A stretch of 64,000 bases of DNA, taken from the NCBI RefSeq assembly GCF_015710975.1, contig NZ_CP049783.1, forward strand, positions 2,043,501-2,107,500, given 5' to 3'. Below the pieces are notes generated by a model that saw only the letters and a program-made list of their open reading frames with translations, was not told where the DNA came from and ran no database searches. Numbering within the stretch: position 1 is the first letter of the stretch; every line of letters begins with the position of its first letter. This stretch comes from Paenibacillus polymyxa (lineage in GTDB: Bacteria; Bacillota; Bacilli; Paenibacillales; Paenibacillaceae). A program made the position numbers and the translations under genes. Positions 41,129 to 57,774 of this stretch are shown here, one piece after another.

Positions 41129-42958
41129 ATGATGTCAGGGCATGTAGGAACAATCCTTCGATCCATGTGGAGGCGGATTACGCAAAAATTAGTGAACAAG
41201 CTCATTCTGCTTTTTACCTCGGTGATTATTCTGGTGGTGGGCTCACTCACGATTATTTCCTATCAGATGATTGAAAAGGAGTCGGTCAATCATAGCATCG
41301 CCAGCACGACGAATAATCTGCTGCTGGTCAATCAGAATTTGGAGGATTACTTGGAGGGAATGCAGCAGTTGGCCCTTCCACAGCTTCGCTATAACGATAT
41401 CATGAACGCGATTGCCAATGAGAACCGGGACTACGCTGCACGAATGGTCATTGAAAATTACTTGCGCAACATGTTCTATTCCCGCAATGATCTGGAAGCG
41501 ATTTATCTGTATGTGGCGGACCGGCATCAATACTACGTGGTGACTAGGGAAACGTACAATATTACAGTACGCAAAGGAATAAACACGGATATTCCCAAGC
41601 TTCCCTGGTATAAAGAGGCGATGGACAGTACCGCTAACGAATCTTTTCAATCCTTTGTAGAGTCCCGCTCTGATATGGGCTATGTGGCGCCACAAGCCAG
41701 CTTTATGGCTTACCATCGAGTGCTGAGATCGATTGCATCCCGTCACCCGCAGGCAGTGTTGTCCTTTTATTACAACACGAGTGCCGTAGATGAAATCATG
41801 CGAAATATTCCACTGGGTAAAGGGGATCAACTGATGCTAATCAGCCCCAAGCGGGTTCCCTTTTATGTGAACAGCCTTCCGCTGTATGAACGAATGCGTG
41901 ATTCTGGCGTATTGGCCCAGATCGGAGAGGGAGGAAGCGGGCGAGTAACGTGGTCAGACAGCAACAGCAACCAGGAGTATTTGGTCGTGTATGATGAAGG
42001 TGAAAAGGACGGGTGGCAGCTCATCAAACCGATTCCATATCGCCAAATTTATGAGGCAGCTACGACCACACGGAATTGGAGTTATGTCATCGGGGCTTTA
42101 TTTTTAGGTGTGTCTATTATTTTGGTGACCCTGACCTCGAACGCCATTACCCGACCTTTACATAAGCTATCTACCCAGATGAAACGGTTCAGCACCGGAG
42201 ATTTTGAGGCAAGGGCTCCTGTGAAGGGGCATGACGAGATTGCATATTTGTCGCTGCACTTTAACGAAATGGTCCAAAGAACCGAAGAACTTATTAATGA
42301 GCGCTATCGCATGAAGCTGGTCGAAAAGAATGCCATACTCAAGGCGCTGGAGGCTGAGATTAATCCCCATTTTCTGTACAATGCCTTACAAGCCATATCT
42401 ACACAGGCATTAAAGCGGAAGATGTTCGATATGGCGGATATGGTGGATGCATTGGCCCAAACTTTGCGGTATTCCATCAACGGCAAGGATATCGTAGCTG
42501 CCCGCGAGGAGCTCAAGCATATTGAACGATATATAGGTCTGCAAAAGGCAAGATTCGGGGCGAGACTTCAGGTCGAAGTGGTATGGGAGGACACGCTGAT
42601 GGAGCTGCCAATTCCGAGATTATCCGTGCAAACGTTGGTAGAAAACTCTATCAAGCATGCACTAGAAAAAGTATCAAGTGACATTCTGATCGTCATTTCA
42701 GCCGAATCGGGTGCTACAGACGCTACAATTTCAGTCAGGGACAACGGACCTGGAATTTCAGAGGACAAGCTGAAAATAGTGTTGGATTCGTTCCACGAAA
42801 AATGGGAAGAGCGGGAGAGCGAGCATATTGGCTTGAAGAATTTGAACACACGGTTGAAGCTTTTGTATGGAGATCATGCAGGATTATTCATACTTACGGA
42901 TGAAACGGGCACGGAAATGAGAGTGCAAATTCCCCGGGGAGGAGTCGACCATGTATAA
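41129..42958 (+). CDS. YesM-family sensor histidine kinase
   Basis: This 609-residue membrane kinase senses an extracellular signal, probably a sugar or the loaded binding protein. There is an N-terminal helix (residues 20-45), an extracellular sensor of about 280 residues, a second helix near 330, HAMP (about 350-400), the His-kinase motif EINPHFLYNAL near 410 and an ATPase domain with ENSIKHAL (N box) and DNGPGI (G1 box). The ATG at 41129 follows AAAAGGGGCGG; the upstream in-frame ATG lacks a site. It overlaps the response regulator gene by eight bases. Confidence 0.92.
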   Translation: MMSGHVGTILRSMWRRITQKLVNKLILLFTSVIILVVGSLTIISYQMIEKESVNHSIASTTNNLLLVNQNLEDYLEGMQQLALPQLRYNDIMNAIANENRDYAARMVIENYLRNMFYSRNDLEAIYLYVADRHQYYVVTRETYNITVRKGINTDIPKLPWYKEAMDSTANESFQSFVESRSDMGYVAPQASFMAYHRVLRSIASRHPQAVLSFYYNTSAVDEIMRNIPLGKGDQLMLISPKRVPFYVNSLPLYERMRDSGVLAQIGEGGSGRVTWSDSNSNQEYLVVYDEGEKDGWQLIKPIPYRQIYEAATTTRNWSYVIGALFLGVSIILVTLTSNAITRPLHKLSTQMKRFSTGDFEARAPVKGHDEIAYLSLHFNEMVQRTEELINERYRMKLVEKNAILKALEAEINPHFLYNALQAISTQALKRKMFDMADMVDALAQTLRYSINGKDIVAAREELKHIERYIGLQKARFGARLQVEVVWEDTLMELPIPRLSVQTLVENSIKHALEKVSSDILIVISAESGATDATISVRDNGPGISEDKLKIVLDSFHEKWEERESEHIGLKNLNTRLKLLYGDHAGLFILTDETGTEMRVQIPRGGVDHV

Positions 42959-44597
42959 CGTATTGATTATTGACGATGAAGAACCGTTACGAGAGGCCAT
43001 TCGTATTGTTGGAGACTGGGATCGTCTGGGCATCGAACATATTTATGAGGCGACGAATGGAAGGTTGGGGATGGAACTGCTCGGTCAGCATCCTATCGAT
43101 GTGGTGATGGTGGATATGAAAATGCCGGAGATGAACGGCATTGAATTTCTTCGTGTGGTCGAAAAGGCATATCCCCATCTGCTGACCATTGTCATTAGTG
43201 GCTACAACGACTTTGAATTTACGCGACAAGCGATTCAATCACGGGTAGTAGATTATCTGCTCAAGCCTATCAACCGCCAGGATCTGAATCAGGCCCTGCG
43301 CAAGGCGGTGGACATTCTGGAAAGCCGCAAGCAAAGCCAAGACGAATTCATCAACCAGAGCATTACGCTGAATATGTCACTACCGAAGCTGAAAGAGAAG
43401 CTGTATGTATCCATTTTGGATGGCAGCTTTAAAAGGCAGGCCAATACGTCGTTGCTCCCACTAATTGGAGCCGATCGGGCGGAGAACCGCTTTGGGGTGA
43501 TCGTGCTACGGTTACTGAACAGGGATGAGATTCGCAGGACTCGTTTTCATGGCGATGTCGACCTGATGGATTTTGCGGTAACTAATGTATTAGCGCAAAC
43601 ATCAGATGAACGGTTGCGTTGTTTTAGCTTCCCCCACCCGCGAAGAGAGCGTGAGGTCGTATCGATCTGTACTCTGGCCCCAGGACAAGAAGAACATATG
43701 TCCCTCCTACTGGCACAAGTGGCACAGAAGGCGGTTGCGAACCTGCATGGGCTGTTCAGTATGGTGGTAGCAGCCGGAGTGGGCAAGCTCTGTTCAGACG
43801 TAGTGGAGCTGGCTTCTGCGTATAGGGATGCCAAGAGGTTCATTCACAATACAGATGTGTTGAAGCTGGAAGGGGAATCTATTCTCCACACGGTACCGCG
43901 GCAAATGGGGACGTCAGAGGAAATGCCATGGACGGATCGGTTGTTGTCGATCCAAAAGGATGCTCAGAACGGTCAGGCCAACCGAGCAAAGGTACTCCTG
44001 AGCGATCTATTGAAACAATTGGCAGCTGGTCCTGTTTTCCGTTTACAGGATGCGGATCGATTGCTGCGGGAGTTCCATTTTTTATTGAGAGAAGCAGCGA
44101 TTGAACTGGGTACGCCTATGTCCGCGTCTAATCAGGAGGGAACTTTGGGGGAATTGGGTCGTGTGATTGAAGGTGAGCTATCTGCTGATTTTGCGAGCTT
44201 TGCCGACTACAGCCAGAGACTATACCAGATACTGGAGCTCTACATTGCCGGGGTCCAACATGCACAGGCGGGTAACCAACCCTTTGATATTACAGAGATC
44301 AAAAAATACATCGAGCGATACTATTTTGAAGATATCAAAATCTCGTTTTTTGCCGAAACCTATTTTTTGAGCCGGGAATATCTGATGAAGTTGTTCAAGC
44401 AGCAATTTGGTTACGGTATTCACGAATATGTACAGAAGGTCAGAATGGACAAGGCGAAGGAGCTACTGGGTGATTCCAGCCTGAAAATTCAGGAAATTTC
44501 CGATATGCTCGGTTATAAGGATAAAAACTATTTCAGCAAGGCTTTTCGCAATTATTATCAGGTGTCACCTTCAGAGTATCGCGTGAGCCTGCAATAA
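42951..44597 (+). CDS. YesN-family response regulator (receiver plus AraC HTH)
   Basis: This 548-residue regulator is the partner of the kinase. The receiver domain (1-120) has the acidic pair IDDEEP, phospho-Asp in VMVDMKMPEMNG near residue 55 and Lys in YLLKPI near 105. A long middle region of unknown fold follows. The AraC-type DNA-binding domain covers about 445-548, with ISFFAETYFLSREYLMKLFKQ and IQEISDMLGYKDKNYFSKAF. Translation is coupled to the kinase. It should activate the binding-protein gene downstream and/or the divergent permeases. Confidence 0.93.
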   Translation: MYNVLIIDDEEPLREAIRIVGDWDRLGIEHIYEATNGRLGMELLGQHPIDVVMVDMKMPEMNGIEFLRVVEKAYPHLLTIVISGYNDFEFTRQAIQSRVVDYLLKPINRQDLNQALRKAVDILESRKQSQDEFINQSITLNMSLPKLKEKLYVSILDGSFKRQANTSLLPLIGADRAENRFGVIVLRLLNRDEIRRTRFHGDVDLMDFAVTNVLAQTSDERLRCFSFPHPRREREVVSICTLAPGQEEHMSLLLAQVAQKAVANLHGLFSMVVAAGVGKLCSDVVELASAYRDAKRFIHNTDVLKLEGESILHTVPRQMGTSEEMPWTDRLLSIQKDAQNGQANRAKVLLSDLLKQLAAGPVFRLQDADRLLREFHFLLREAAIELGTPMSASNQEGTLGELGRVIEGELSADFASFADYSQRLYQILELYIAGVQHAQAGNQPFDITEIKKYIERYYFEDIKISFFAETYFLSREYLMKLFKQQFGYGIHEYVQKVRMDKAKELLGDSSLKIQEISDMLGYKDKNYFSKAFRNYYQVSPSEYRVSLQ

Positions 44598-47450: not shown

Positions 47451-49181
47451 TTATTTGTAGGAGGGCTCCGGCACTTCATTTTGTAGAAAATCTATTTGTT
47501 TCATATAAGAGTTAGAATAAGTGCTGTTATAAGACATTAGATCCGCATGGCTGCCCTGTTCTACAATTTGACCATTTTGAACAACTAATATATGATCCGC
47601 ATGAATGACTGTTTGGAATTTATGAGCAATAATAATGATAGTTCGTTTACCCTTAAGCTCATTTAAAAGGCGCAAGATTAGAGATTCAGTTTCAGCGTCA
47701 AGGGCAGAGGTTAGCTCATCCAAAATGAGCACAGGTGCATTGTGAAGCAATGCCCTTGCTATAGCCAGACGTTGTTTCTGGCCTACCGATAAGTCATATT
47801 TTCCAGAAATAATATTAGTGTTATATTTTTCGGGAAGGGATGAGATATAGTCATGTAGCCCCACCTTCTTTGAAATATTAACAACTTCATCTAAAGTAGC
47901 ATTTTTATTGCCAAAGGCAATATTATTGAATATGGTTCCTGTTGTTAATAATTCTTCTTGTGTGACTACTGCTATATTTTTATAGAAGTAATTTTTATTC
48001 AAATCGTGTAATCTGTTATCCCCATAGTGGATCTCGCCCTTAGTCGGAATGACTTCTCCGGTTAGGAGCTTCACAATAGTCGTTTTACCAGATCCACTTT
48101 CGCCTACGATACCTAACATTTGATTTTTTTTGATTTCAAACGAGATGTCATCAAGAATAGGAGTAAGACTGTTATAGGAAAAAGATACATTTTTTACATA
48201 TATTCCATTTCCCATAAATTTCTCAATTTTTGTGCCGTTCCAAACATCATTTAAATTGAAAAAGTTAAGAATCCTTTCAGCTGAAGCTACCGCTGATTGC
48301 ACACCTACGTTTAATTGTGACAAACGTGATACCGGTTGTAGCAACTTGACTATATATGTACTGAAAGCAACCAGTGTACCTAAAGTAATCTCTCCATAAA
48401 TTAGTAAAAAACCTCCAATAACTAGTAAAAGTAAAGGGAAAAATCCGCTTAAAAAGTTACTGATTATACCTAGTAGCAGTTCTCGCGCAAAAAGTTTTTT
48501 CAAAATACGAACCAAAAGGATTTGTTCTCTGCAAAATAGGGCATTACTATATTTTTGACGGTTAAATCTGATTGCAGTCCATTTTTGTTTCAAACCTAAC
48601 TGAAGGGTTTCTGTCATATCTTCATATTGTTTTTTGTAGGCAACATTTAATTGGTAGACTTTCTTTTTGGAATTGTAGTATAAGAAAAAGTAAATAGGGA
48701 TAAAGATCAGGGAGACCGTTGCCAGCTTCCAATTCATAAAATAGAGAACAACAACGGTTGCGACAATCGTCAGACAGTCCGTAAACATAGCTATAAATGC
48801 TTGATTTAGCAATCCAGTAAGAGCTTCGACATCATTATAGAGTAAGGAAATAATTTTTCCGGGGGGCTGATGACTTCGTAAATTAAGATTTTGTTGATAA
48901 ATATCATTCCTCAATCGGAACTGTAATAAATTTTTGATTTTAAAAATGATTGAATCTCTCAGTGCTCCTGTCAATCCTCCACCAATTAGTAGTAATAAAA
49001 AAAGGCCACCTAAATAGCAGATCTCTTTAGCTGAGAGTGTTTCTGTGTTATAGGAATCTATCAGCCGCTGCATTAAAATAGGTTGGTAGATCATGAACAA
49101 TATATTTATGATAATGATACAAAGTACAGTAATTTGTAGTGCCAGTAAAGGCTTAATGTATTTTCTGATTAGTTGGAACAT
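47451..49181 (-). CDS. papT: Ranthipeptide ABC exporter (membrane and ATPase fused)
   Basis: This 576-residue half-transporter has six N-terminal helices (1-310) and a C-terminal ATPase with Walker A GESGSGKTT near 368, signature LSVGQKQR near 478 and Walker B VLILDELTSALD. It lies directly downstream of the radical SAM gene and is the probable exporter of the modified peptide. Unlike many bacteriocin exporters it has no N-terminal C39 peptidase: residue 1 leads straight into the first helix. Leader removal must therefore be done elsewhere. The DNA is AT-rich. The symbol papT is a label by locus position, not a name I can confirm. Confidence 0.85.
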   Translation of the reverse strand: MFQLIRKYIKPLLALQITVLCIIIINILFMIYQPILMQRLIDSYNTETLSAKEICYLGGLFLLLLIGGGLTGALRDSIIFKIKNLLQFRLRNDIYQQNLNLRSHQPPGKIISLLYNDVEALTGLLNQAFIAMFTDCLTIVATVVVLYFMNWKLATVSLIFIPIYFFLYYNSKKKVYQLNVAYKKQYEDMTETLQLGLKQKWTAIRFNRQKYSNALFCREQILLVRILKKLFARELLLGIISNFLSGFFPLLLLVIGGFLLIYGEITLGTLVAFSTYIVKLLQPVSRLSQLNVGVQSAVASAERILNFFNLNDVWNGTKIEKFMGNGIYVKNVSFSYNSLTPILDDISFEIKKNQMLGIVGESGSGKTTIVKLLTGEVIPTKGEIHYGDNRLHDLNKNYFYKNIAVVTQEELLTTGTIFNNIAFGNKNATLDEVVNISKKVGLHDYISSLPEKYNTNIISGKYDLSVGQKQRLAIARALLHNAPVLILDELTSALDAETESLILRLLNELKGKRTIIIIAHKFQTVIHADHILVVQNGQIVEQGSHADLMSYNSTYSNSYMKQIDFLQNEVPEPSYK

Positions 49182-49297: not shown

Positions 49298-50701
49298 CTA
49301 ACCAAAAAGGATGCTTCTTTGTTCCTGGGTAAGTTGGAGGTATAAATTTATAGTAGCGTTAATGAAATTCTTAGTTACTTTGCAAAGTTTACCGACAGGT
49401 TGATTGACATTTCCGTTCTCCGCGAAGTTCTCTTGATGGCATCCACCACCACAAAGATTTTTGGCCCAACACTTTGAACAGGTGGTTCTATTTCTTACTG
49501 TTGAATTCTCAATGAAATTATACTGTTTGCTCAATGGATCTTCATCAAATAGATTGCCAATAGAGCATTCATCCTCGCCTACAAAACGATGGCAAGGGAA
49601 CAAATTTCCCCTAACATCAACAGCGGCCGCATTCGTACCCGCTCCACAAAAGTGGATTCTAGGACCGCCAGAATGAATTTTACTAAGCATGCCAAGGACA
49701 TTGGACATTTTTTTGGCTGTAACATAGTCTTCACGTTCCAGTAACTCTCGGAATTGCTCTACGAGTTTAACCATTTCTTTGGATAAAGTATCGTAATGAT
49801 CGTCCGATAGGGAATAAAGTGCTGGAGATAAATATATTTTTCTGAACCCCAGTTTCACTAAATGATCAAAAGATTTAGAAAGGTCAAGCTCTGCAGGAGT
49901 TACTGTACCGCGCGCGCCTATTTTACGATCATTTCTCATTTCTTCTGTACGCTTCAAGAGTAAATCGTAGGATCCTTGTCCACCTTTAAAAAAACGATTG
50001 AAATTATGCGTTTTTTCATCACCATCTATGCTGGTCTGCACCGCAAAATGATGTTTGTAAAAAAAGTTTTTGATTTTAGGAGTGATAAGTGTACCATTTG
50101 TCGTTATTGAAAAAGAAAATTTCTTATTATGAATTTCGGATTGCTCATGAACATACTGTACCGTCTCTTGTATGAGAGGGAAATTTAACAAGGGTTCACC
50201 GCCGAAAAAGGTGATATTCAATTGCTCTATTTCACCCGATTGTTGGATCAGAAAGTCTACGGCAGATCTAGCAATCTCTGAAGTCATTTTCCCTTTTTGA
50301 TTATATTCTCCTTCCTCCCCATAACAGTAAGTACATCTAAGGTTACATTCTTGCACCATAAATAAGGTCAGAGAGGATAATTTGAAGACTCTTTGCGAGT
50401 TATCAAGTATCCCCATTTTTTCAACATCTGATATGTTAGCATCTGTGGCAATAATGTATGCTTCCTTCATATTTTGGATGGCTTCTCTTACCTGTGATAA
50501 TTCATAACGCTCGGCTAAATCCTTAACAACGTGCTCCTCGTTTTTGCCTTTACTATGTAGAATATCGATAATTAATGAGTCAATCTCAAATATGGCATTC
50601 GTTACAACGTTATAAAAGAAGGTTTTTGAGTCAACTTCAAACAATTTATAAGGGTGGAAATGAATGAGTTCATCTTCTCTATCCTGAATCAGATTAGCCA
50701 T
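49298..50701 (-). CDS. papB: Radical SAM/SPASM ranthipeptide maturase (PapB-type)
   Basis: This 467-residue enzyme uses a radical to link Cys sulphur to the beta carbon of Asp in the precursor. An N-terminal peptide-recognition-like region covers about 1-100. The radical SAM cluster is ligated by Cys 119, 123 and 126 (CX3CX2C). A C-terminal SPASM region (about 350-455) has seven or more Cys, including CSKCWAKNLCGGGC, for auxiliary Fe-S clusters. It follows the precursor gene on the same strand, beyond a hairpin. It matches PapB of the freyrasin pathway of P. polymyxa by context and precursor identity. That assignment rests on recalled literature. Confidence 0.9.
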   Translation of the reverse strand: MANLIQDREDELIHFHPYKLFEVDSKTFFYNVVTNAIFEIDSLIIDILHSKGKNEEHVVKDLAERYELSQVREAIQNMKEAYIIATDANISDVEKMGILDNSQRVFKLSSLTLFMVQECNLRCTYCYGEEGEYNQKGKMTSEIARSAVDFLIQQSGEIEQLNITFFGGEPLLNFPLIQETVQYVHEQSEIHNKKFSFSITTNGTLITPKIKNFFYKHHFAVQTSIDGDEKTHNFNRFFKGGQGSYDLLLKRTEEMRNDRKIGARGTVTPAELDLSKSFDHLVKLGFRKIYLSPALYSLSDDHYDTLSKEMVKLVEQFRELLEREDYVTAKKMSNVLGMLSKIHSGGPRIHFCGAGTNAAAVDVRGNLFPCHRFVGEDECSIGNLFDEDPLSKQYNFIENSTVRNRTTCSKCWAKNLCGGGCHQENFAENGNVNQPVGKLCKVTKNFINATINLYLQLTQEQRSILFG

Positions 50702-50744: not shown

Positions 50745-50774
50745 AAACGGGATTAATTTTAATTAATCCCGTTT
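50745..50774 (-). terminator. Attenuator-type hairpin between papA and papB
   Basis: AAACGGGATTAATT and AATTAATCCCGTTT form a perfect 14-bp stem around a two-base loop. On the minus strand a pyrimidine-rich TTTTCCTTTCTT follows. Its place between precursor and maturase genes suggests partial termination, so that precursor mRNA exceeds enzyme mRNA. Confidence 0.75.
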
Positions 50775-50836: not shown

Positions 50837-50986
50837 CTAGGTATCCGATTTGATACAAAAATCACTTGCATCACATGCTTTGCAGTTATCTCTAGTATCA
50901 CAGAAATAGCAAGCATCATTGGCTGAGCAACCATAAGCGCGAATTGGTTCTTTAACTCCTGCAATAACATTGATTTGCTTCAACAT
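50837..50986 (-). CDS. papA: Ranthipeptide precursor (freyrasin type), 49 aa
   Basis: This 49-residue peptide has a Lys/Ile/Val-rich leader of about 19 residues and a Cys/Asp-rich core from Gly-19 on. Cys lie at 20, 26, 29, 35, 38 and 44, and each has an Asp four residues later (24, 30, 33, 39, 42, 48), giving six Cys-X3-Asp pairs, some interlaced. That is the pattern of freyrasin, whose six S-to-C-beta thioethers are made by PapB in P. polymyxa. GGGAGGTGA lies about five bases before the ATG, so translation should be strong. The gene is too short for usual gene callers. Biological role of the product is not known to me. Confidence 0.93.
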   Translation of the reverse strand: MLKQINVIAGVKEPIRAYGCSANDACYFCDTRDNCKACDASDFCIKSDT

Positions 50987-51285
50987 GTTCTTCACCTCCC
51001 TCTAGATAAGCTAAACGGTGTAGAAGGTATGTAAGTTATATAGAAATAGTACAACATAAAAAGGAGAATATGTGTTACAGTTTTTTGTCCAATATTTGTT
51101 TATTATATTATATTTTTCAATTATATAGTGTTTTTTGTCACATTATTATCTGGTTTAAAAATGTAAAATATCGATTGGTATTTTAGTAAATTAACAACCC
51201 ACATACTGATTATGTAATACTTTATTGCTGTTTTACTCCAATAAATGTATAATATATGGTGATTATTGTATTGGGAGGTATAAAA
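50987..51285. other. Divergent AT-rich control region of papA and the ABC-2 operon
   Basis: These 299 bases are strongly AT-rich with long T and A runs. A good promoter for the rightward operon is listed separately. For papA on the minus strand several weak -35/-10 pairs are possible and none is convincing. No regulator gene is nearby. Confidence 0.5.
51225..51253 (+). promoter_or_regulatory. Sigma-A promoter of the ABC-2 transporter operon
   Basis: TTGCTG (51225-51230) and consensus TATAAT (51248-51253) are 17 bases apart. The leader to the first gene is then only about 25 bases. Confidence 0.65.
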
Positions 51286-52212
51286 ATGGATTATATTATT
51301 AAAACAAAAAAGCTTCGGAAACAGTTTGGGATGTCGATAGCTGTAGACGATATTTCCTTACATGTAGAACGGGGCAGCATCTACGGTTTTCTAGGTGAAA
51401 ATGGAGCTGGCAAAACAACGACCATCCGCATGCTGATGAGGCTGATTGAGCCTACAAATGGGGAGGTTTTTTTATTTGGCGAGCGGCTAGAGAAAAGCTA
51501 TCCTTCTATCTTCTCAAAAATAGGTACGATTATCGAAACGCCTGGTTTATACGAAAATCTGAGTGCACGAGATAATCTGAGAATATGCTGTACGTACATG
51601 GGGGTACAGGATGATGGGAGAATTGAACGAACCCTAACTACGGTGGGGTTAGAGCATACTGGAAAAAAGAAGTTCAAAGATTTTTCCCTGGGAATGAAAC
51701 AGCGATTAGGGATTGCCAGGGCCCTTGTCCATGATCCTGAGTTGCTTATATTAGATGAGCCAACGAACGGGTTAGACCCGTCAGGAATTAAGGAAATTCG
51801 TCAGCTATTAAAGAAGTTGTGCGAGGAACAAGGGAAAACAATTCTTATTTCTAGCCATATTCTAAGCGAAATTCAACAATTAGCTACACACATCGGGATT
51901 ATACATAATGGAAAACTGTTAGCGGAGGATCGTTTGAGTCGGTTAGAGGAAGGTTTTGAGCAATATACAGATGTAAAGGTAGACGATGCAAAAGCAGTAC
52001 AAGCGTTTCTGTATGAGAACATGAAGCAACTTAAATCTGATTTGATATCCCCACAACAACTAAGAATTTTTAGTCCAATTGAAAATACAGCTATGTTAAA
52101 TAGACAGTTAATAGATCGTCAGTTTTCAGTTTATGAGATACACACCACAAAGCAGACGCTAGAGGAGTACTTTTTGACTCTCATTTCAGGAGAGGGTGGG
52201 CGGCATGATTAG
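51286..52212 (+). CDS. ABC-2-type transporter ATP-binding protein (BcrA-like)
   Basis: This 308-residue ATPase belongs to the group that includes bacitracin and lantibiotic self-protection transporters. Walker A GENGAGKTT lies near residue 40, signature FSLGMKQR near 135 and Walker B LLILDEPTNGLDPSG near 155. A C-terminal extension of about 90 residues follows, as in BcrA/NisF. The ATG at 51286 follows GGGAGG by eight bases. It is divergent from papA and overlaps the next permease gene by eight bases. A role in freyrasin immunity is a reasonable but untested idea. Confidence 0.85.
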   Translation: MDYIIKTKKLRKQFGMSIAVDDISLHVERGSIYGFLGENGAGKTTTIRMLMRLIEPTNGEVFLFGERLEKSYPSIFSKIGTIIETPGLYENLSARDNLRICCTYMGVQDDGRIERTLTTVGLEHTGKKKFKDFSLGMKQRLGIARALVHDPELLILDEPTNGLDPSGIKEIRQLLKKLCEEQGKTILISSHILSEIQQLATHIGIIHNGKLLAEDRLSRLEEGFEQYTDVKVDDAKAVQAFLYENMKQLKSDLISPQQLRIFSPIENTAMLNRQLIDRQFSVYEIHTTKQTLEEYFLTLISGEGGRHD

Positions 52213-52915
52213 AGCAGAACTCATTAAGCTTAAAGGATCTAAAGCCTTCTTGTTGAGCTATATTATATTGCTGGCTGTTGTGCTGTTGGAATTCGCTCTA
52301 AGCGCTATTTTTTATAGATATTCAATTGATAGGCTCGGTTGGGTCTACTATTTTACAAATATTGATTTCTTAGTTAATATTGCAGCTGGATTTATTAGCT
52401 ATTACATATTAACCGGTCATATTTTTGCGAGAGAGTACCAGGAAAACACGCACATCTTTATGTTTACCACGCCTGTCACCAGGGTTAGATTTTATTTTAG
52501 TAAATTGATCATTATTTATGGGTTTATTATTGTGTCGCTATTTATCGTTCTGTTTCTGTCTGCAGTATTAGGCATGTTCATTACAAATCGGCCTTTAACG
52601 ATGGCTATCTGGGTATATCAAATCCAGGTATTTGCCAAAATGTGCGTGATGCATGCGATGCTCATCCCGGTCGCCTCTTTTTTTGCTATACGCTGGAAAA
52701 GCATTATGGTGGTTGTACTCGTAGTTTGTACTGTTATATTTTTGAATTTTATGTACAAAAGTGAATGGTATCCGTGGATTATACCCTATCTTTTGTCTCC
52801 CAATGAAGGAAGTGCGATCATATACGTCAATACTCTCATAGCGTGGTTGAGTTTATCCATAACTTTTCTTCTTGGATTGTTTTTATCCTTATGGGCATAT
52901 CAAAGAAGAAATTAG
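52205..52915 (+). CDS. ABC-2 permease 1 (immunity-type)
   Basis: This 236-residue protein has six hydrophobic helices and the plan of BcrB/NisE-type permeases: MIRAELIKLKGSKAFLLSY at the start and YREYQENTH-like AREYQENTHIFMFTTPV in the first cytoplasmic loop. It overlaps the ATPase gene by eight bases, so the two are translationally coupled. It is clearly paralogous to the next gene, sharing KLKG, YSIDR-GW, YYILT, AREYQE-TH and the RPLT segments. The pair would form a heterodimeric channel. Confidence 0.82.
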   Translation: MIRAELIKLKGSKAFLLSYIILLAVVLLEFALSAIFYRYSIDRLGWVYYFTNIDFLVNIAAGFISYYILTGHIFAREYQENTHIFMFTTPVTRVRFYFSKLIIIYGFIIVSLFIVLFLSAVLGMFITNRPLTMAIWVYQIQVFAKMCVMHAMLIPVASFFAIRWKSIMVVVLVVCTVIFLNFMYKSEWYPWIIPYLLSPNEGSAIIYVNTLIAWLSLSITFLLGLFLSLWAYQRRN

Positions 52916-52945
52916 AGGGAGAGTATTTTTCAAAGGAGGTTTACT

Positions 52946-53683
52946 ATGCTTGCCCTGTTCAAAGTAGAGTGCTTGAAACTGAAAGGTACTAAAATTCTTT
53001 GGTTAAGCATTATTATTTTAGCATTAACCATTGCTTTGGAATTCTATAGTTATACGGGAAGTACCAAATATTCCATTGACCGTGATGGTTGGAATGACTA
53101 CTTTATGAGTGTTGTTATTCTTATTAACTTTTTGACTGGGTATATGAGCTACTATATTTTGACTTGCTATATCTATGCGAGGGAGTATCAAGAGAGGACC
53201 CATATGGCCTTGTTCACAAGTCCGGTTCGTCGGAGTCGTCTTTACTTCAGCAAGCTGCTTGTTATTTATATGTACATCGCTGTCAGCCTTCTGTTGGCAT
53301 TTGGGCTATCTGCGCTGTTGGGTATGTTAATTACGACCAGACCGCTAACCTTTGAAATCGTTATATATCAGCTGGGGATCTTCGCCAAAATGATTCTTAT
53401 GCACGCTATGCTCATCCCGATCATCACGTTCATCGCCATTCGCTGGAGAAAATTTGTGCCCGCCATTATGGGGATGTGTACGGTTATGTGTTTAAATTTT
53501 GTTTTGGTTAATACACCTGGAAATACCTTTTATCCATGGACCGTGCCGCTATTGTTTTCTCCGCACGGCACACTGGGCAGAACATTTACGAATGTCCCTG
53601 GAGGAGTCATCAGTATTTGTTTCATTTTTGTATTGGGGCTCTTATTGGCGTTAAGAAGCTATATCCGTATAGAGACAAAGTAG
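52946..53683 (+). CDS. ABC-2 permease 2 (immunity-type)
   Basis: This 245-residue six-helix permease is a diverged tandem duplicate of the previous gene, with the same motifs in the same order (ECLKLKGTKILWLS; YSIDRDGWNDYF; YAREYQERTHMALFTSPVRRSRLYFSKL). AAAGGAGG precedes its ATG, so it has its own strong site. The order ATPase, permease, permease matches NisFEG-like self-protection systems. It is the last gene of the operon. Confidence 0.82.
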   Translation: MLALFKVECLKLKGTKILWLSIIILALTIALEFYSYTGSTKYSIDRDGWNDYFMSVVILINFLTGYMSYYILTCYIYAREYQERTHMALFTSPVRRSRLYFSKLLVIYMYIAVSLLLAFGLSALLGMLITTRPLTFEIVIYQLGIFAKMILMHAMLIPIITFIAIRWRKFVPAIMGMCTVMCLNFVLVNTPGNTFYPWTVPLLFSPHGTLGRTFTNVPGGVISICFIFVLGLLLALRSYIRIETK

Positions 53684-54139: not shown

Positions 54140-57100
54140 TTACTTGGTGAAAACTTTAACTTCCTTTGGAGCGAGAGTTACGGTGATCGAGCCGTTGTTA
54201 ATCTGAACGGAGTCGTTGCTTAGCTGGTTGGTCAGGCGGGTTCCGTTGGACAGATTATCGAAGTTGCCAATCGTGCGGGTTTGACTATTCCAGGAGTTGT
54301 TGATAAATACAATGGCCTCGTCGCCATTTTTAGAGCGCTGAAAACTGTAAAAGGAGTCGTCGACCCATTTTTCCTTTTGGCTGCCGTTTTGCAGAGCAGG
54401 GTGGTTGTTGCGCACAGAGTTCAGCTTAGCGATGTACTGATACAGGTCATGGTTGGCGTTGAAATTCATATTCTCCCGATTGGCGGGATCATCTCCGCCA
54501 TTAAAGCCTTGCTCAGTGCCTTGGTAGATGATTGGAATTCCGCGTGACGTCAGAGTAAAGCCCAAAGCAGTTTTGAGCTGTGGCCATTTGTCATAGTTAG
54601 CACCCGGCTTGCCGGAGGCGTCATTCAGGAAACGTTTTACATCATGATTGTCGATAAATACACCGTTGGTCTGAGCATCGCGATAGTAACGATCATCGGA
54701 GTAGCGATCCTTGATTTTTCTCATGGATTGATCGTGTCCGAACACGTCCTTGATTGTATAATACATCGGAAAATCTAGTGCAGCATCAAGATACCGGGTG
54801 TAATCGCCCACATAAGCAGGGTCGCCATGGAAAATTTCACCCATGGTGAAGGTATTGGCAGCTTGGTCAAAATCCTTTAGAAAACCCTTCGGTACATGCT
54901 TGACAGTATCCAACCGCAGTCCATCGATGCCTGTCTCATTAAGCAGCCATTTGATCCAGTTTTTAAGCTCGTTTGCGGTAGCGGGGTTTTCATGATTTAG
55001 GTCATCCAGTCCAGCCACGTCACCATTTTCGATTTTCCATTGATTGTTGGAGTTGTAGTCCCCGTCTGTAATGTCACCATTGTGATGATACCAGTCTGCT
55101 TTGTCAAAAGGAGCCTTGGCGAATCCGTTCCCCGGTTGGAAATCACCTGTGTGATTCACAACTACGTCCACCATCACAGCAATATTTTTGTCATGTGCCT
55201 TGCGAACCAGCTCTTGGAGCTTGTCCATTGTTCCGAGATGCCCATCTACTGCATAAAAATCATACGTATGATAGCCGTGGTAAGCGTATTCACTCTTTTG
55301 CATCGTTACTGGGGTAATCCAGATCGCGGTAAACCCCATATTTTTAATGTAGTCGAGTTTGTTAATAATACCTTGAAAATCGCCACCATGCCACTTGCGC
55401 TGATCACTATTGTTGGAATTGAAGCCACCGTAGTTATCATTGGATGGATCACCGTTGCTGAAACGATCTGTCATGATAAAATAAATGCTCTGTTTGCTCC
55501 AGTCTGTGCTGAGGGAGGTGGGCTTGGAGAGGGTACCCAGATCCATAGGGGTGAAGACGCCCGAAGGCGCCTCCGTTTGAGCTGTTACTTCAACTCCGTT
55601 AGAGTTGGGTGCGTAGGTAGAAGTGCTTACGTTTAAGGATACACCTGAAAGTTTTTCTGTTTGGATAGGTCCTGTAACTTCGTTGAGGTCGGTTGCGTAG
55701 GTGGAAGTCACTACGCTGAGGACGCTCCCGGAAGGTGCCCCTGTTCGGATAGTTCCTGCGGCTCCGTTAGAGCCGGGCGTGTAGGTAGAAGTTCCAGTGC
55801 TGAAAAGGTAGTTTTTGGTATTGTTGCTGTCCCAGTTGTTATTGCCATCATTAAAAGCGGCTTCCAATTGGGAGGCAGAACCGATATCGACGGTAATTTT
55901 AGCATAGCCGCTAATTTCGGCATCCTGCATTTTCACACCAGGTGCAGCAGTCCAGCTACCACCAGCCGGACGGTAGTGAATGTAAGGTGAGTTAAAGCCT
56001 TTTTTGTAGTATACCGTTACTTTGTTAGTTGTACCGCCGCCATCCCCGGGATTCGCACCCGCTGGAGCGCCTGAAGTGATCGTTCCTGCATTGCCACTAT
56101 TACCGGGCGTGTACGTAGAAGTGCCCGTGCTGAAGGAGTAGTTTTTGGTGTTGTTGCTGTCCCAGTTGTTATTGCCGTCGTTAAAAGCGGCTTCCAATTG
56201 GGAGGCAGAACCGATATCGACGGTAATTTTAGCATAGCCGCTAATTTCGGCATCCTGCATTTTCACACCAGGTGCAGCAGTCCAGCTACCACCAGCCGGA
56301 CGGTAGTGAATGTAAGGCGAGTTGAAGCCTTTTTTATAGTATATCGTTACTTTGTTGCCTGTACCGCCATTGTTGTCAGGCTTGGCTTTGCTGATGATAT
56401 ATTGTTTGAATCCACTCAACTCACCGGTTGGTGAGCCATCATTGTTGACGAGATTGTTGATGCGTAATAACGTAAACCCGTGATAACCGAACTTCGTGAT
56501 TTTCTCCTCGATTTTTTGGAAGCCGCTGCCGCCTGTCGGAAGTGCATTTTCACCATTCAGGCGAACACCCTTGGCATTCGCGATGGAGGAGACGGTATCA
56601 ACCAGGGTGGACGGCAGCGAATAATTCGGTGCTGTGCCACTGTCACTCATCTCCAGGCAAGTAAATGTCAAGTCTAGATCGGCATCCTTGAATTTCTGAA
56701 TGAGACGGTTGTAATCATAATATCCACCCGCTTGTTCTGTGCCGTGCGGCATGGCAGGATTGTTCATTTGCCAGTGCAGACCAGAAATTTTGGCCCCGAT
56801 CCGGACACCAAACACAGAATCGAAGTTTTTGTGGGCCGCTGCTCCGATGACACCTAGATGCTTCTCAAGCACACTTTGGTACCACGATAGGAAATCCTTT
56901 CCATACGCGGAATTATACCCGCCGTTCGTGTAAAATCCGTCTCCGTCGGTCGGTGGATTGATTTGGCTAAGGCTGGTAAGCTTGGTGCCCCAAGCAGCAT
57001 TAATCTTGTCCAATGATCCGTACTTGTCATTCATAGCTGTGCGGAATGCATTTTTGGCTGTTTCAGTATAAGCTTGGAACTTGCCTCGTCCCGGGTAGCT

Positions 57101-57730
57101 CCATCCTGCTGCTGGATAGTAGGATGGATAGCGCAATTCCCCGGAAGGACCGCCGCTCAAATAAATTTTGGGAATGATACTTTTATACCCGGCAAAGTTT
57201 TCAGCGAATGAGGCATACAGCTCATCATATTGTTTACCGGTTCCGCTCCACAATGGGGAAAGGGCTTCACTATTGGCATAGCCGCTTTCGTCTTTGAACT
57301 GCATCTCATCTGCACTGCCCTTGCTCGACAGCCAGCTTGGTAGTGGGATGTTGCAGTCATCTCCTACATTTCCTCCACACTTATGCGTTGAGATGATAGG
57401 AACCCACTTCAGTCCCGCTTCTTTCACAGCATTTGCATAGGTTTTGTAGTAACTCCAATCGAACTGGTTATCTCCTGCGCTCTCCACATAGCCCCACCAG
57501 ACGTCGGTAGTGATGGCATATACGCCATTGTTTTTCAACGTTTGTAGCTGCTTTTTAAAGGAACCCCAGTCATTGATTTTCGCCAGCGGTCCCATAACGG
57601 AAGCTTGAAAATCATCTGCAACCGCAGCGCTCGCCGTATTAGAGGGTGAGCCAATGAAGGCGGTCAGAGACAGCACAAGGCTTAGTAGAAGCATACACCC
57701 TTTTTTCCATAGACTTCGATACAAGGTCAA
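54140..57730 (-). CDS. Beta/alpha-amylase precursor (GH14, two CBM25, GH13)
   Basis: This 1196-residue secreted enzyme combines two starch hydrolases. After a signal peptide ending near NTASA come a GH14 beta-amylase (about 40-450, with catalytic Glu in GGPSGELRYPSY and LNGENALP), two almost identical CBM25 starch-binding domains (about 458-545 and 568-655), a Ser/Thr-rich linker with degenerate STYxP repeats, and a GH13 alpha-amylase (about 740-1110, with GLRLDTVKH, MGEIFHG and FIDNHD) plus a C-terminal beta domain. The TTG at 57730 lies nine bases after GGGGAGG and gives 1196 residues, the length I recall for the P. polymyxa enzyme. An ATG at 57739 abuts the ribosome site. Both products, maltose and maltodextrins, are released outside the cell. 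Confidence 0.95.
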   Translation of the reverse strand: MTLYRSLWKKGCMLLLSLVLSLTAFIGSPSNTASAAVADDFQASVMGPLAKINDWGSFKKQLQTLKNNGVYAITTDVWWGYVESAGDNQFDWSYYKTYANAVKEAGLKWVPIISTHKCGGNVGDDCNIPLPSWLSSKGSADEMQFKDESGYANSEALSPLWSGTGKQYDELYASFAENFAGYKSIIPKIYLSGGPSGELRYPSYYPAAGWSYPGRGKFQAYTETAKNAFRTAMNDKYGSLDKINAAWGTKLTSLSQINPPTDGDGFYTNGGYNSAYGKDFLSWYQSVLEKHLGVIGAAAHKNFDSVFGVRIGAKISGLHWQMNNPAMPHGTEQAGGYYDYNRLIQKFKDADLDLTFTCLEMSDSGTAPNYSLPSTLVDTVSSIANAKGVRLNGENALPTGGSGFQKIEEKITKFGYHGFTLLRINNLVNNDGSPTGELSGFKQYIISKAKPDNNGGTGNKVTIYYKKGFNSPYIHYRPAGGSWTAAPGVKMQDAEISGYAKITVDIGSASQLEAAFNDGNNNWDSNNTKNYSFSTGTSTYTPGNSGNAGTITSGAPAGANPGDGGGTTNKVTVYYKKGFNSPYIHYRPAGGSWTAAPGVKMQDAEISGYAKITVDIGSASQLEAAFNDGNNNWDSNNTKNYLFSTGTSTYTPGSNGAAGTIRTGAPSGSVLSVVTSTYATDLNEVTGPIQTEKLSGVSLNVSTSTYAPNSNGVEVTAQTEAPSGVFTPMDLGTLSKPTSLSTDWSKQSIYFIMTDRFSNGDPSNDNYGGFNSNNSDQRKWHGGDFQGIINKLDYIKNMGFTAIWITPVTMQKSEYAYHGYHTYDFYAVDGHLGTMDKLQELVRKAHDKNIAVMVDVVVNHTGDFQPGNGFAKAPFDKADWYHHNGDITDGDYNSNNQWKIENGDVAGLDDLNHENPATANELKNWIKWLLNETGIDGLRLDTVKHVPKGFLKDFDQAANTFTMGEIFHGDPAYVGDYTRYLDAALDFPMYYTIKDVFGHDQSMRKIKDRYSDDRYYRDAQTNGVFIDNHDVKRFLNDASGKPGANYDKWPQLKTALGFTLTSRGIPIIYQGTEQGFNGGDDPANRENMNFNANHDLYQYIAKLNSVRNNHPALQNGSQKEKWVDDSFYSFQRSKNGDEAIVFINNSWNSQTRTIGNFDNLSNGTRLTNQLSNDSVQINNGSITVTLAPKEVKVFTK
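55786..56020. repeat. CBM25 coding repeat, copy 2
   Basis: This copy matches the one at 56116-56350 almost fully, offset by 330 bases (110 codons). The core at 55851-55987 (137 bases) is identical to 56181-56317. Confidence 0.9.
56116..56350. repeat. CBM25 coding repeat, copy 1
   Basis: Partner of the repeat at 55786-56020 inside the amylase gene. Identity without even synonymous changes over 137 bases points to recent duplication or gene conversion. Confidence 0.9.
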
Positions 57731-57774
57731 ACCGATCATCCTCCCCAAAAGCATAGTCTAATTCGACAACATTT

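What the first reader, a model, noticed from the sequence alone, without database searches (positions are those of the whole stretch)
50837..50986. Freyrasin-type ranthipeptide precursor with six Cys-X3-Asp pairs in 49 codons
The reading frame is short but has a strong ribosome site and lies before a radical SAM/SPASM gene. All six Cys have an Asp exactly four residues later, and pairs 2/3 and 4/5 interlace. This equals the known pattern of freyrasin from P. polymyxa, so the locus is probably that system or a close variant. Its biological role remains open as far as I know.
Basis: partly seen in the sequence, partly recalled or inferred. Interest (0 to 1): 0.85.

Follow-up and report, generated by a model that had tools for sequence, protein, structure and literature searches.

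The report
The known freyrasin ranthipeptide gene cluster
This is the already described freyrasin gene set of Paenibacillus polymyxa, which makes a small peptide tied into six sulfur rings; comparing it with relatives suggests, but does not prove, that the peptide is a weapon against related bacteria carried together with its own protection pump.

Summary
On the minus strand, 50986-50837 encodes a 49-residue peptide in which all six Cys have Asp four residues on. It scores 65.6 bits against NCBIfam freyrasin_like (cut-off 30), and the next gene scores 476 against PapB (cut-off 340). Residues 2-25 have exactly the published mass of the minimal PapA substrate. This is freyrasin, or a near-identical allele, so it is already known; its six rings were shown by others.

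Bearing on the open role: (1) all 16 PapB-type loci found in 394 family genomes carry, within about 5.5 kb, both an exporter and a separate ABC ATPase-permease module (ABC-2-like in 13, Bce-like in 3); 0 of 40 control stretches have both. (2) Between two genomes papT/papB are 96-98% identical but papA only 73%: leader and Cys/Asp are kept, spacers vary. (3) papA-B-T is a presence/absence cassette. I favour a bacteriocin-like peptide with linked self-protection. Against it: the ABC genes also stand at six places without pap, intact at four.

The parts
50837..50986 (-). papA, freyrasin precursor (49 aa): leader 1-19, core 20-49 with six Cys-X3-Asp pairs
   Evidence: (NF037957, 65.6 bits, cut-off 30)
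50745..50774 (-). Hairpin of 13 pairs followed by a U-rich tail between papA and papB; probable partial terminator that sets the precursor:maturase ratio (inferred). Present in G025 and G045, with one A-T to G-C exchange kept paired in G045 (read by eye)
   Evidence: searches (but that scan found 2 terminator-like sites against 2.5 expected; z -3.39 for the 139-base stretch), alignment
49298..50701 (-). papB, radical SAM/SPASM maturase (467 aa), CNLRCTYC at residues 119-126
   Evidence: NF047865, 476.2 bits, cut-off 340; PDB 5wgg by sequence
47451..49181 (-). ABC exporter (576 aa, membrane + ATPase domains, no peptidase domain found); called papT here for convenience
50987..51285 (.). Divergent control region between papA and the ABC-2 set; differs from the abcA upstream region of genomes lacking pap here, so it seems to belong to the cassette
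51286..52212 (+). ABC ATPase (abcA) of the divergent ABC-2 set; best NCBIfam match is lantibiotic protection ATPase, below cut-off
   Evidence: TIGR03740 265.5 bits, cut-off 309.75
52205..52915 (+). ABC-2 permease 1
   Evidence: PF12730, 56.0 bits, cut-off 27; no NCBIfam match
52946..53683 (+). ABC-2 permease 2; weak match to lantibiotic immunity permeases MutG/MutE, far below cut-off
   Evidence: PF12730, 77.8 bits

Best explanation
The locus is the freyrasin cluster. PapA is translated; [quoted passage not shown] The exporter (47451-49181) sends it out, and a protease not in the cluster removes the leader (inferred). Outside, the ring scaffold displays variable spacer residues and most likely acts as a narrow-spectrum bacteriocin-like peptide on close relatives, with the divergent ABC-2 set (51286-53683) as self-protection (inferred). 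papA-B-T comes and goes as a cassette and papA is exchanged separately from papB, as expected of competing specificities (inferred).
For: Identity. Conserved arrangement: the same genes in the same order in G025 and G045. Role: 16 of 16 PapB-type loci have both an exporter and a separate ABC ATPase-permease module within about 5.5 kb of papB, against 0 of 40 control stretches (either feature alone 2 of 40). The modules are of different kinds: abcA-like sets (13 loci) and an FtsX-type permease with its ATPase (3 loci); in one of these three (L098) the next two genes were shown to be a histidine kinase and a response regulator, and the other two have frames of like length there. From recall, this is the layout of Bce peptide-antibiotic resistance modules. 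In G045 contig 177 and in G007 papT, papB (shortened in G007) and the ABC-2 set lie together at another place with a 3' fragment of the flanking oxidoreductase gene, which fits their having moved as one block. papA spacers: dN/dS 1.00, 0.70 and 0.99 in three pairs against 0.01, 0.04 and 0.08 in the leader; among six alleles 12 of 12 Cys/Asp, 15 of 19 leader and 1 of 18 spacer residues are invariant. Site patterns: papB after residue 100 148:3:5 for G000=G025, papA leader 2:8:2.
Against: The ABC-2 set also stands without papA-B-T at the same chromosomal place in six relatives: intact in four, one permease frame broken in G018, a remnant in G059. So it has or had another use, or these are immune non-producers; G045 carries pap elsewhere, and G019, G027 and G045 carry a type-2 PapB-like locus elsewhere. 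Its proteins miss the NCBIfam cut-offs for lantibiotic immunity, and PF12730 permeases are common: 14 matches in the window's own genome, two of them these. The 16 loci are not independent: four gene arrangements, related by descent; and the ATPase query panel came from these loci. Spacer variation can be mere relaxed constraint, since PapB is promiscuous (PMC9413430); dS in papA is near saturation and rests on three DNA sequences. No antimicrobial activity of freyrasin appears in the passages I read.
Confidence: 0.55

Rival explanations
1. Freyrasin is a cell-to-cell signal (quorum-type) peptide; variable spacers mark signalling groups and the second ABC module senses or imports it.
For: Allelic specificity patterns as also fit signals. 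At L098 a histidine kinase and a response regulator are linked. A quorum-sensing role of clostridial ranthipeptides is recalled; 46 papers hold both terms (listing of 15 seen only).
Against: No kinase or regulator gene lies between the exporter and the ABC-2 set in the window. The nearest regulator-like frame (42951-44597, judged by eye) is about 3 kb beyond the exporter and beside a sugar-binding-protein-like gene. For types 1-3 I named genes only by likeness to window proteins, so regulators there were not searched for. Bce-like modules are mostly detoxification systems (recalled).
Confidence: 0.25
2. A metal- or redox-related peptide, or a lineage-specific peptide with no antagonistic role; the ABC-2 set is an unrelated neighbour.
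For: The ABC-2 set is present without pap in six relatives at the same place.
Against: Cys are consumed in thioethers (published); the recurrence of an exporter plus a second ABC module in four arrangements is not explained.
Confidence: 0.17
3. The small frame is a chance ORF.
For: None found.
Against: Curated family match, conserved homologues, shuffle test.
Confidence: 0.01

Closest known systems
Freyrasin (PapA/PapB) of Paenibacillus polymyxa ATCC 842
   Same: Precursor and maturase families above curated cut-offs; mass of residues 2-25 equals the published minimal substrate; six CX3D cross-links as published (passages).
   Different: Nothing found. Full-length identity to the ATCC 842 sequence could not be checked: the primary papers are not held. 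A near-identical allele with Lys32 exists (P0002).
SCIFF / thermocellin (CteA/CteB)
   Same: PapB resembles CteB-type maturases; PDB 5wgg is the best sequence match (that it is CteB is recalled).
   Different: TIGR03974 scores 275 against cut-off 425; the acceptor is Asp at +4, not Thr.
LanFEG lantibiotic immunity transporters
   Same: ATPase + two ABC-2 permeases; best ATPase match TIGR03740.
   Different: Below the family cut-offs; linked to a ranthipeptide, and also found without it.
BceAB-BceRS antimicrobial-peptide resistance modules (in three relatives only)
   Same: Permease of 684-694 aa with 9-10 predicted membrane segments and its ATPase in all three; FtsX domain, kinase and regulator shown for L098.
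   Different: Not in the window's cluster; no Bce family model was matched; function untested.

Membership tests
Freyrasin-family precursor (NF037957) | Score above curated cut-off 30 | tested here: met
   65.6 bits, profile 1-69 of 69
Freyrasin-family precursor (NF037957) | Six Cys each with Asp at +4 | tested here: met
Freyrasin itself (PapA of ATCC 842) | Sequence identity to the studied PapA | tested here: inconclusive
   Residues 2-25 match the published mass exactly and 'CSANDA' is printed; mass cannot tell isomeric orders; residues 26-49 were not compared because the papers are not held
PapB maturase (NF047865) | Score above curated cut-off 340 | tested here: met
   476.2 bits; of 398 phylum genomes only the window's own passes
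PapB maturase (NF047865) | CX3CX2C radical SAM motif and SPASM Cys | tested here: met
   CNLRCTYC at 119-126; eight further Cys at 352-440; PF04055 48.8 bits (cut-off 29.5) and PF13186 21.8 (cut-off 21.5, marginal)
Ranthipeptide class | S-C(beta) thioethers in the mature peptide | not testable with these tools
   Published for freyrasin (passages)
LanFEG immunity transporter | ATPase above TIGR03740 cut-off 309.75 and permeases above MutE/MutG cut-offs | tested here: not met
   ATPase 265.5; permease 2 32.2 against 117.2 (MutG) and 25.8 against 145.2 (MutE); permease 1 no match. Not filed as a member; likeness of action only inferred
LanFEG immunity transporter | Confers self-protection | not testable with these tools
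   Needs a deletion or expression test

The most novel reading that the evidence does not exclude
Freyrasin-family ranthipeptides are bacteriocins: an invariant interlocked thioether scaffold displays fast-changing spacer residues, papA alleles are swapped as cassettes under one promiscuous maturase, and each PapB-type cluster carries its own immunity module (ABC-2-like or Bce-like). That would answer the open question of what freyrasin is for.
Probability: 0.45. Interest if true: 0.6.

Novelty: already known. Interest (0 to 1): 0.38.

Why it matters
The peptide and its chemistry are known and PapB is a used cross-linking tool, but I found no stated biological role in the passages read. The linked second ABC modules in all 16 loci and the papA allele pattern turn that into direct tests: does mature freyrasin hurt strains lacking 51286-53683, and do alleles differ in target range?

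Tried and rejected
Phage origin: no similar phage record in near mode. Solved structure of PapA: none at E 10 by sequence. Printed PapA sequence: four fragments searched, 0 papers; I used the published mass instead. Primary papers: not held. Coupling of the variable stretch of permease 2 (residues 15-85) to the papA allele: G025 with pap has the same stretch as three relatives (G027, G018, G045 contig 166) without it at that place, so no coupling. Whole-phylum survey with NF047865: 390 of 398 genomes match at E 0.001, but only 1 passes the cut-off; the rest are probably other maturases, so I used the protein at E 1e-95 in the family. G018 has a type-2-like precursor, but its nearby radical SAM gene matches PapB only at 27.5%; it did not reach the limit and is not among the 16. 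Permeases of types 2 and 3: the six tested (two each from L027, L028, L093) match no Pfam family, and the four of these tested against NCBIfam match none there, so 'ABC-2-like' rests on position beside the ATPase and on predicted membrane segments. My first rule missed the precursors of L097 and L098; they were found by reading all frames. No structure prediction was made: the families were already assigned.

Full report
Translating 50837-50986 on the minus strand gives a 49-residue peptide ending in a stop; the plus strand gives no such peptide. All six Cys have Asp four residues on, pairs 2/3 and 4/5 interlace, and 0 of 2,000,000 shuffles of the core repeat this. A strong ribosome site precedes the ATG. 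The only correction is that the finding did not name the strand.

What it is. NCBIfam names the precursor freyrasin_like (65.6 bits, cut-off 30) and the 467-aa neighbour PapB (476.2, cut-off 340). The window's genome holds one such precursor. PMC9413430 (passages read) gives m/z 844.1197 at z=3 for the minimal PapA substrate and writes it 'leader-CSANDA'; residues 2-25 of the window's peptide have that mass to 0.0000 Da. Of the five alleles tried with up to four added residues, three gave a match within 0.004 Da: the window's; P0003 at 0.0000 with Ala added, an isomeric leader whose own next residue is Phe; and P0004 at 0.0034 with Cys added. Of six alleles only the window's and P0002 have CSANDA. 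PMC9231227 (passage) names P. polymyxa ATCC 842 as the source of freyrasin. The two primary papers are not held. Reviews (passages) state six S-C(beta) thioethers and full cross-linking by PapB in vitro. One of them calls CX3D strictly required, whereas PMC9413430 reports cross-linking with 0 to 6 residues between Cys and Asp. PMC9484694 (passage) reports the correct CxxxD rings by MS/MS. The finding is thus known.

Surroundings. Downstream of papB on the same strand is an ABC exporter without a peptidase domain. Divergently lies an ATPase with two ABC-2 permeases; the ATPase is nearest to lantibiotic protection ATPases but below the cut-off. A 13-pair hairpin with a U-rich tail lies between papA and papB. 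The terminator scan as a whole found no more sites than chance (2 against 2.5), but the stretch folds better than shuffles (z -3.39) and the hairpin is present in G025 and G045 (alignment).

Cassette. In the genus the precursor family has a match in 6 of 75 genomes and passes its cut-off in 3; permease 2 was found in 9 of 75. In six places (G019, G026, G027, G018, G045 contig 166, G059) the oxidoreductase gene is followed directly by the ABC-2 set or its remnant, without papT-B-A. In G045 contig 177 papT-B-A and the ABC-2 genes lie at another place with a 3' fragment of the oxidoreductase gene; the same holds in G007, where papA and the first 141 codons of papB are missing. A pangenome paper also reports patchy freyrasin: 3/24, 0/3, 0/6 and 1/29 strains (PMC11577871, passage).

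papA evolves apart. Between G000 and G025, DNA identity is 96.3% in papT, 98.1% in papB, 73.3% in papA, 68.5% in the papA-abcA gap, 88.0% in abcA, 87.1% and 81.6% in the two permeases and 89.1% in the oxidoreductase. Site patterns (G000=G025: G025=G045: G000=G045) are 305:28:32 in papT, 58:6:7 and 148:3:5 in the two parts of papB, but 2:8:2 in the papA leader and 13:8:18 in its core. Nei-Gojobori dN/dS is 1.00, 0.70 and 0.99 for spacer residues against 0.01, 0.04 and 0.08 for the leader. Among six alleles 15 of 19 leader, 12 of 12 Cys/Asp and 1 of 18 spacer residues are invariant. Exchange of the precursor under a shared maturase is the simplest reading; relaxed constraint is not excluded.

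Linked second ABC module. PapB at E 1e-95 was found in 15 of 394 family genomes, 16 loci. All 16 were scanned and all 16 have both an exporter and a separate ATPase-permease module reaching within 5.5 kb of papB. In 40 evenly spaced control stretches (20 from G000, 20 from four relatives) each feature occurs in 2 and both in 0; with three anchors per stretch, 6, 5 and 0 of 120. The loci fall into four arrangements: type 1 (4 loci, including the window), type 2 (6), type 3 (3), type 4 (3). In type 4 the module is an FtsX permease and ATPase with a kinase and regulator (families tested on L098 only). The effective number is nearer four than sixteen, and the query panel came from the loci.

Judgement. 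Identity as the freyrasin cluster: about 0.97. Role as a bacteriocin-like peptide with linked protection: about 0.55. Maturation is shown in print; export, leader removal, target and immunity are inferred. The strongest contrary fact is that the ABC-2 genes also occur without pap.

Noticed in passing
L097:8000-8500, L098:8250-8720, L099:8050-8600: Three PapB-like loci (38-40% identical maturase) have short precursors with four Cys. Two of them (three in L099) have Asp at +4; the last Cys has its next Asp beyond +1 at +6, and the second Cys of L097 and L098 at +5. Only L099 was scored: 15.8 bits against the freyrasin cut-off of 30. Possible natural ring-size variants.
   Followed up: partly
L026, L027, L029, L030, L093, L094 (type 2); L028, L095, L096 (type 3): Two further precursor types of 51-58 codons with six Cys, five of them with Asp at +4 (the sixth has Glu at +4 in L093 and L094), beside 39-43% identical PapB-like maturases; the three scored (L027, L028, L093) fall below the freyrasin cut-off, at 22.9, 22.9 and 26.5 bits.
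   Followed up: partly
precursors: Residue 6 of the leader, counted from its ML/MF start, is Asn in every precursor type seen, in line with a published proposal that a conserved leader Asn is needed for recognition (passage).
   Followed up: no
L025:6069-7124: In G007 (contig length equals that of P. brasilensis KACC 13842) papA and the first 141 codons of papB are missing while exporter and ABC-2 genes stand: a decayed producer that keeps the putative protection genes.
   Followed up: partly
L024:9715-11318: In G045 the gap between papA and abcA is enlarged to about 1.6 kb and holds frames that look like a transposase (from recall; no family hit for the one frame tested).
   Followed up: no
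52988-53200 (permease 2, residues 15-85): This stretch of permease 2 has distinct haplotypes among relatives (65-100% identity to the window or G025 copy) that do not follow pap presence.
   Followed up: partly
54140-57754: A 1204-aa frame with an internal repeat about 330 bases apart and an amylase-like sequence; family recalled, not searched.
   Followed up: no
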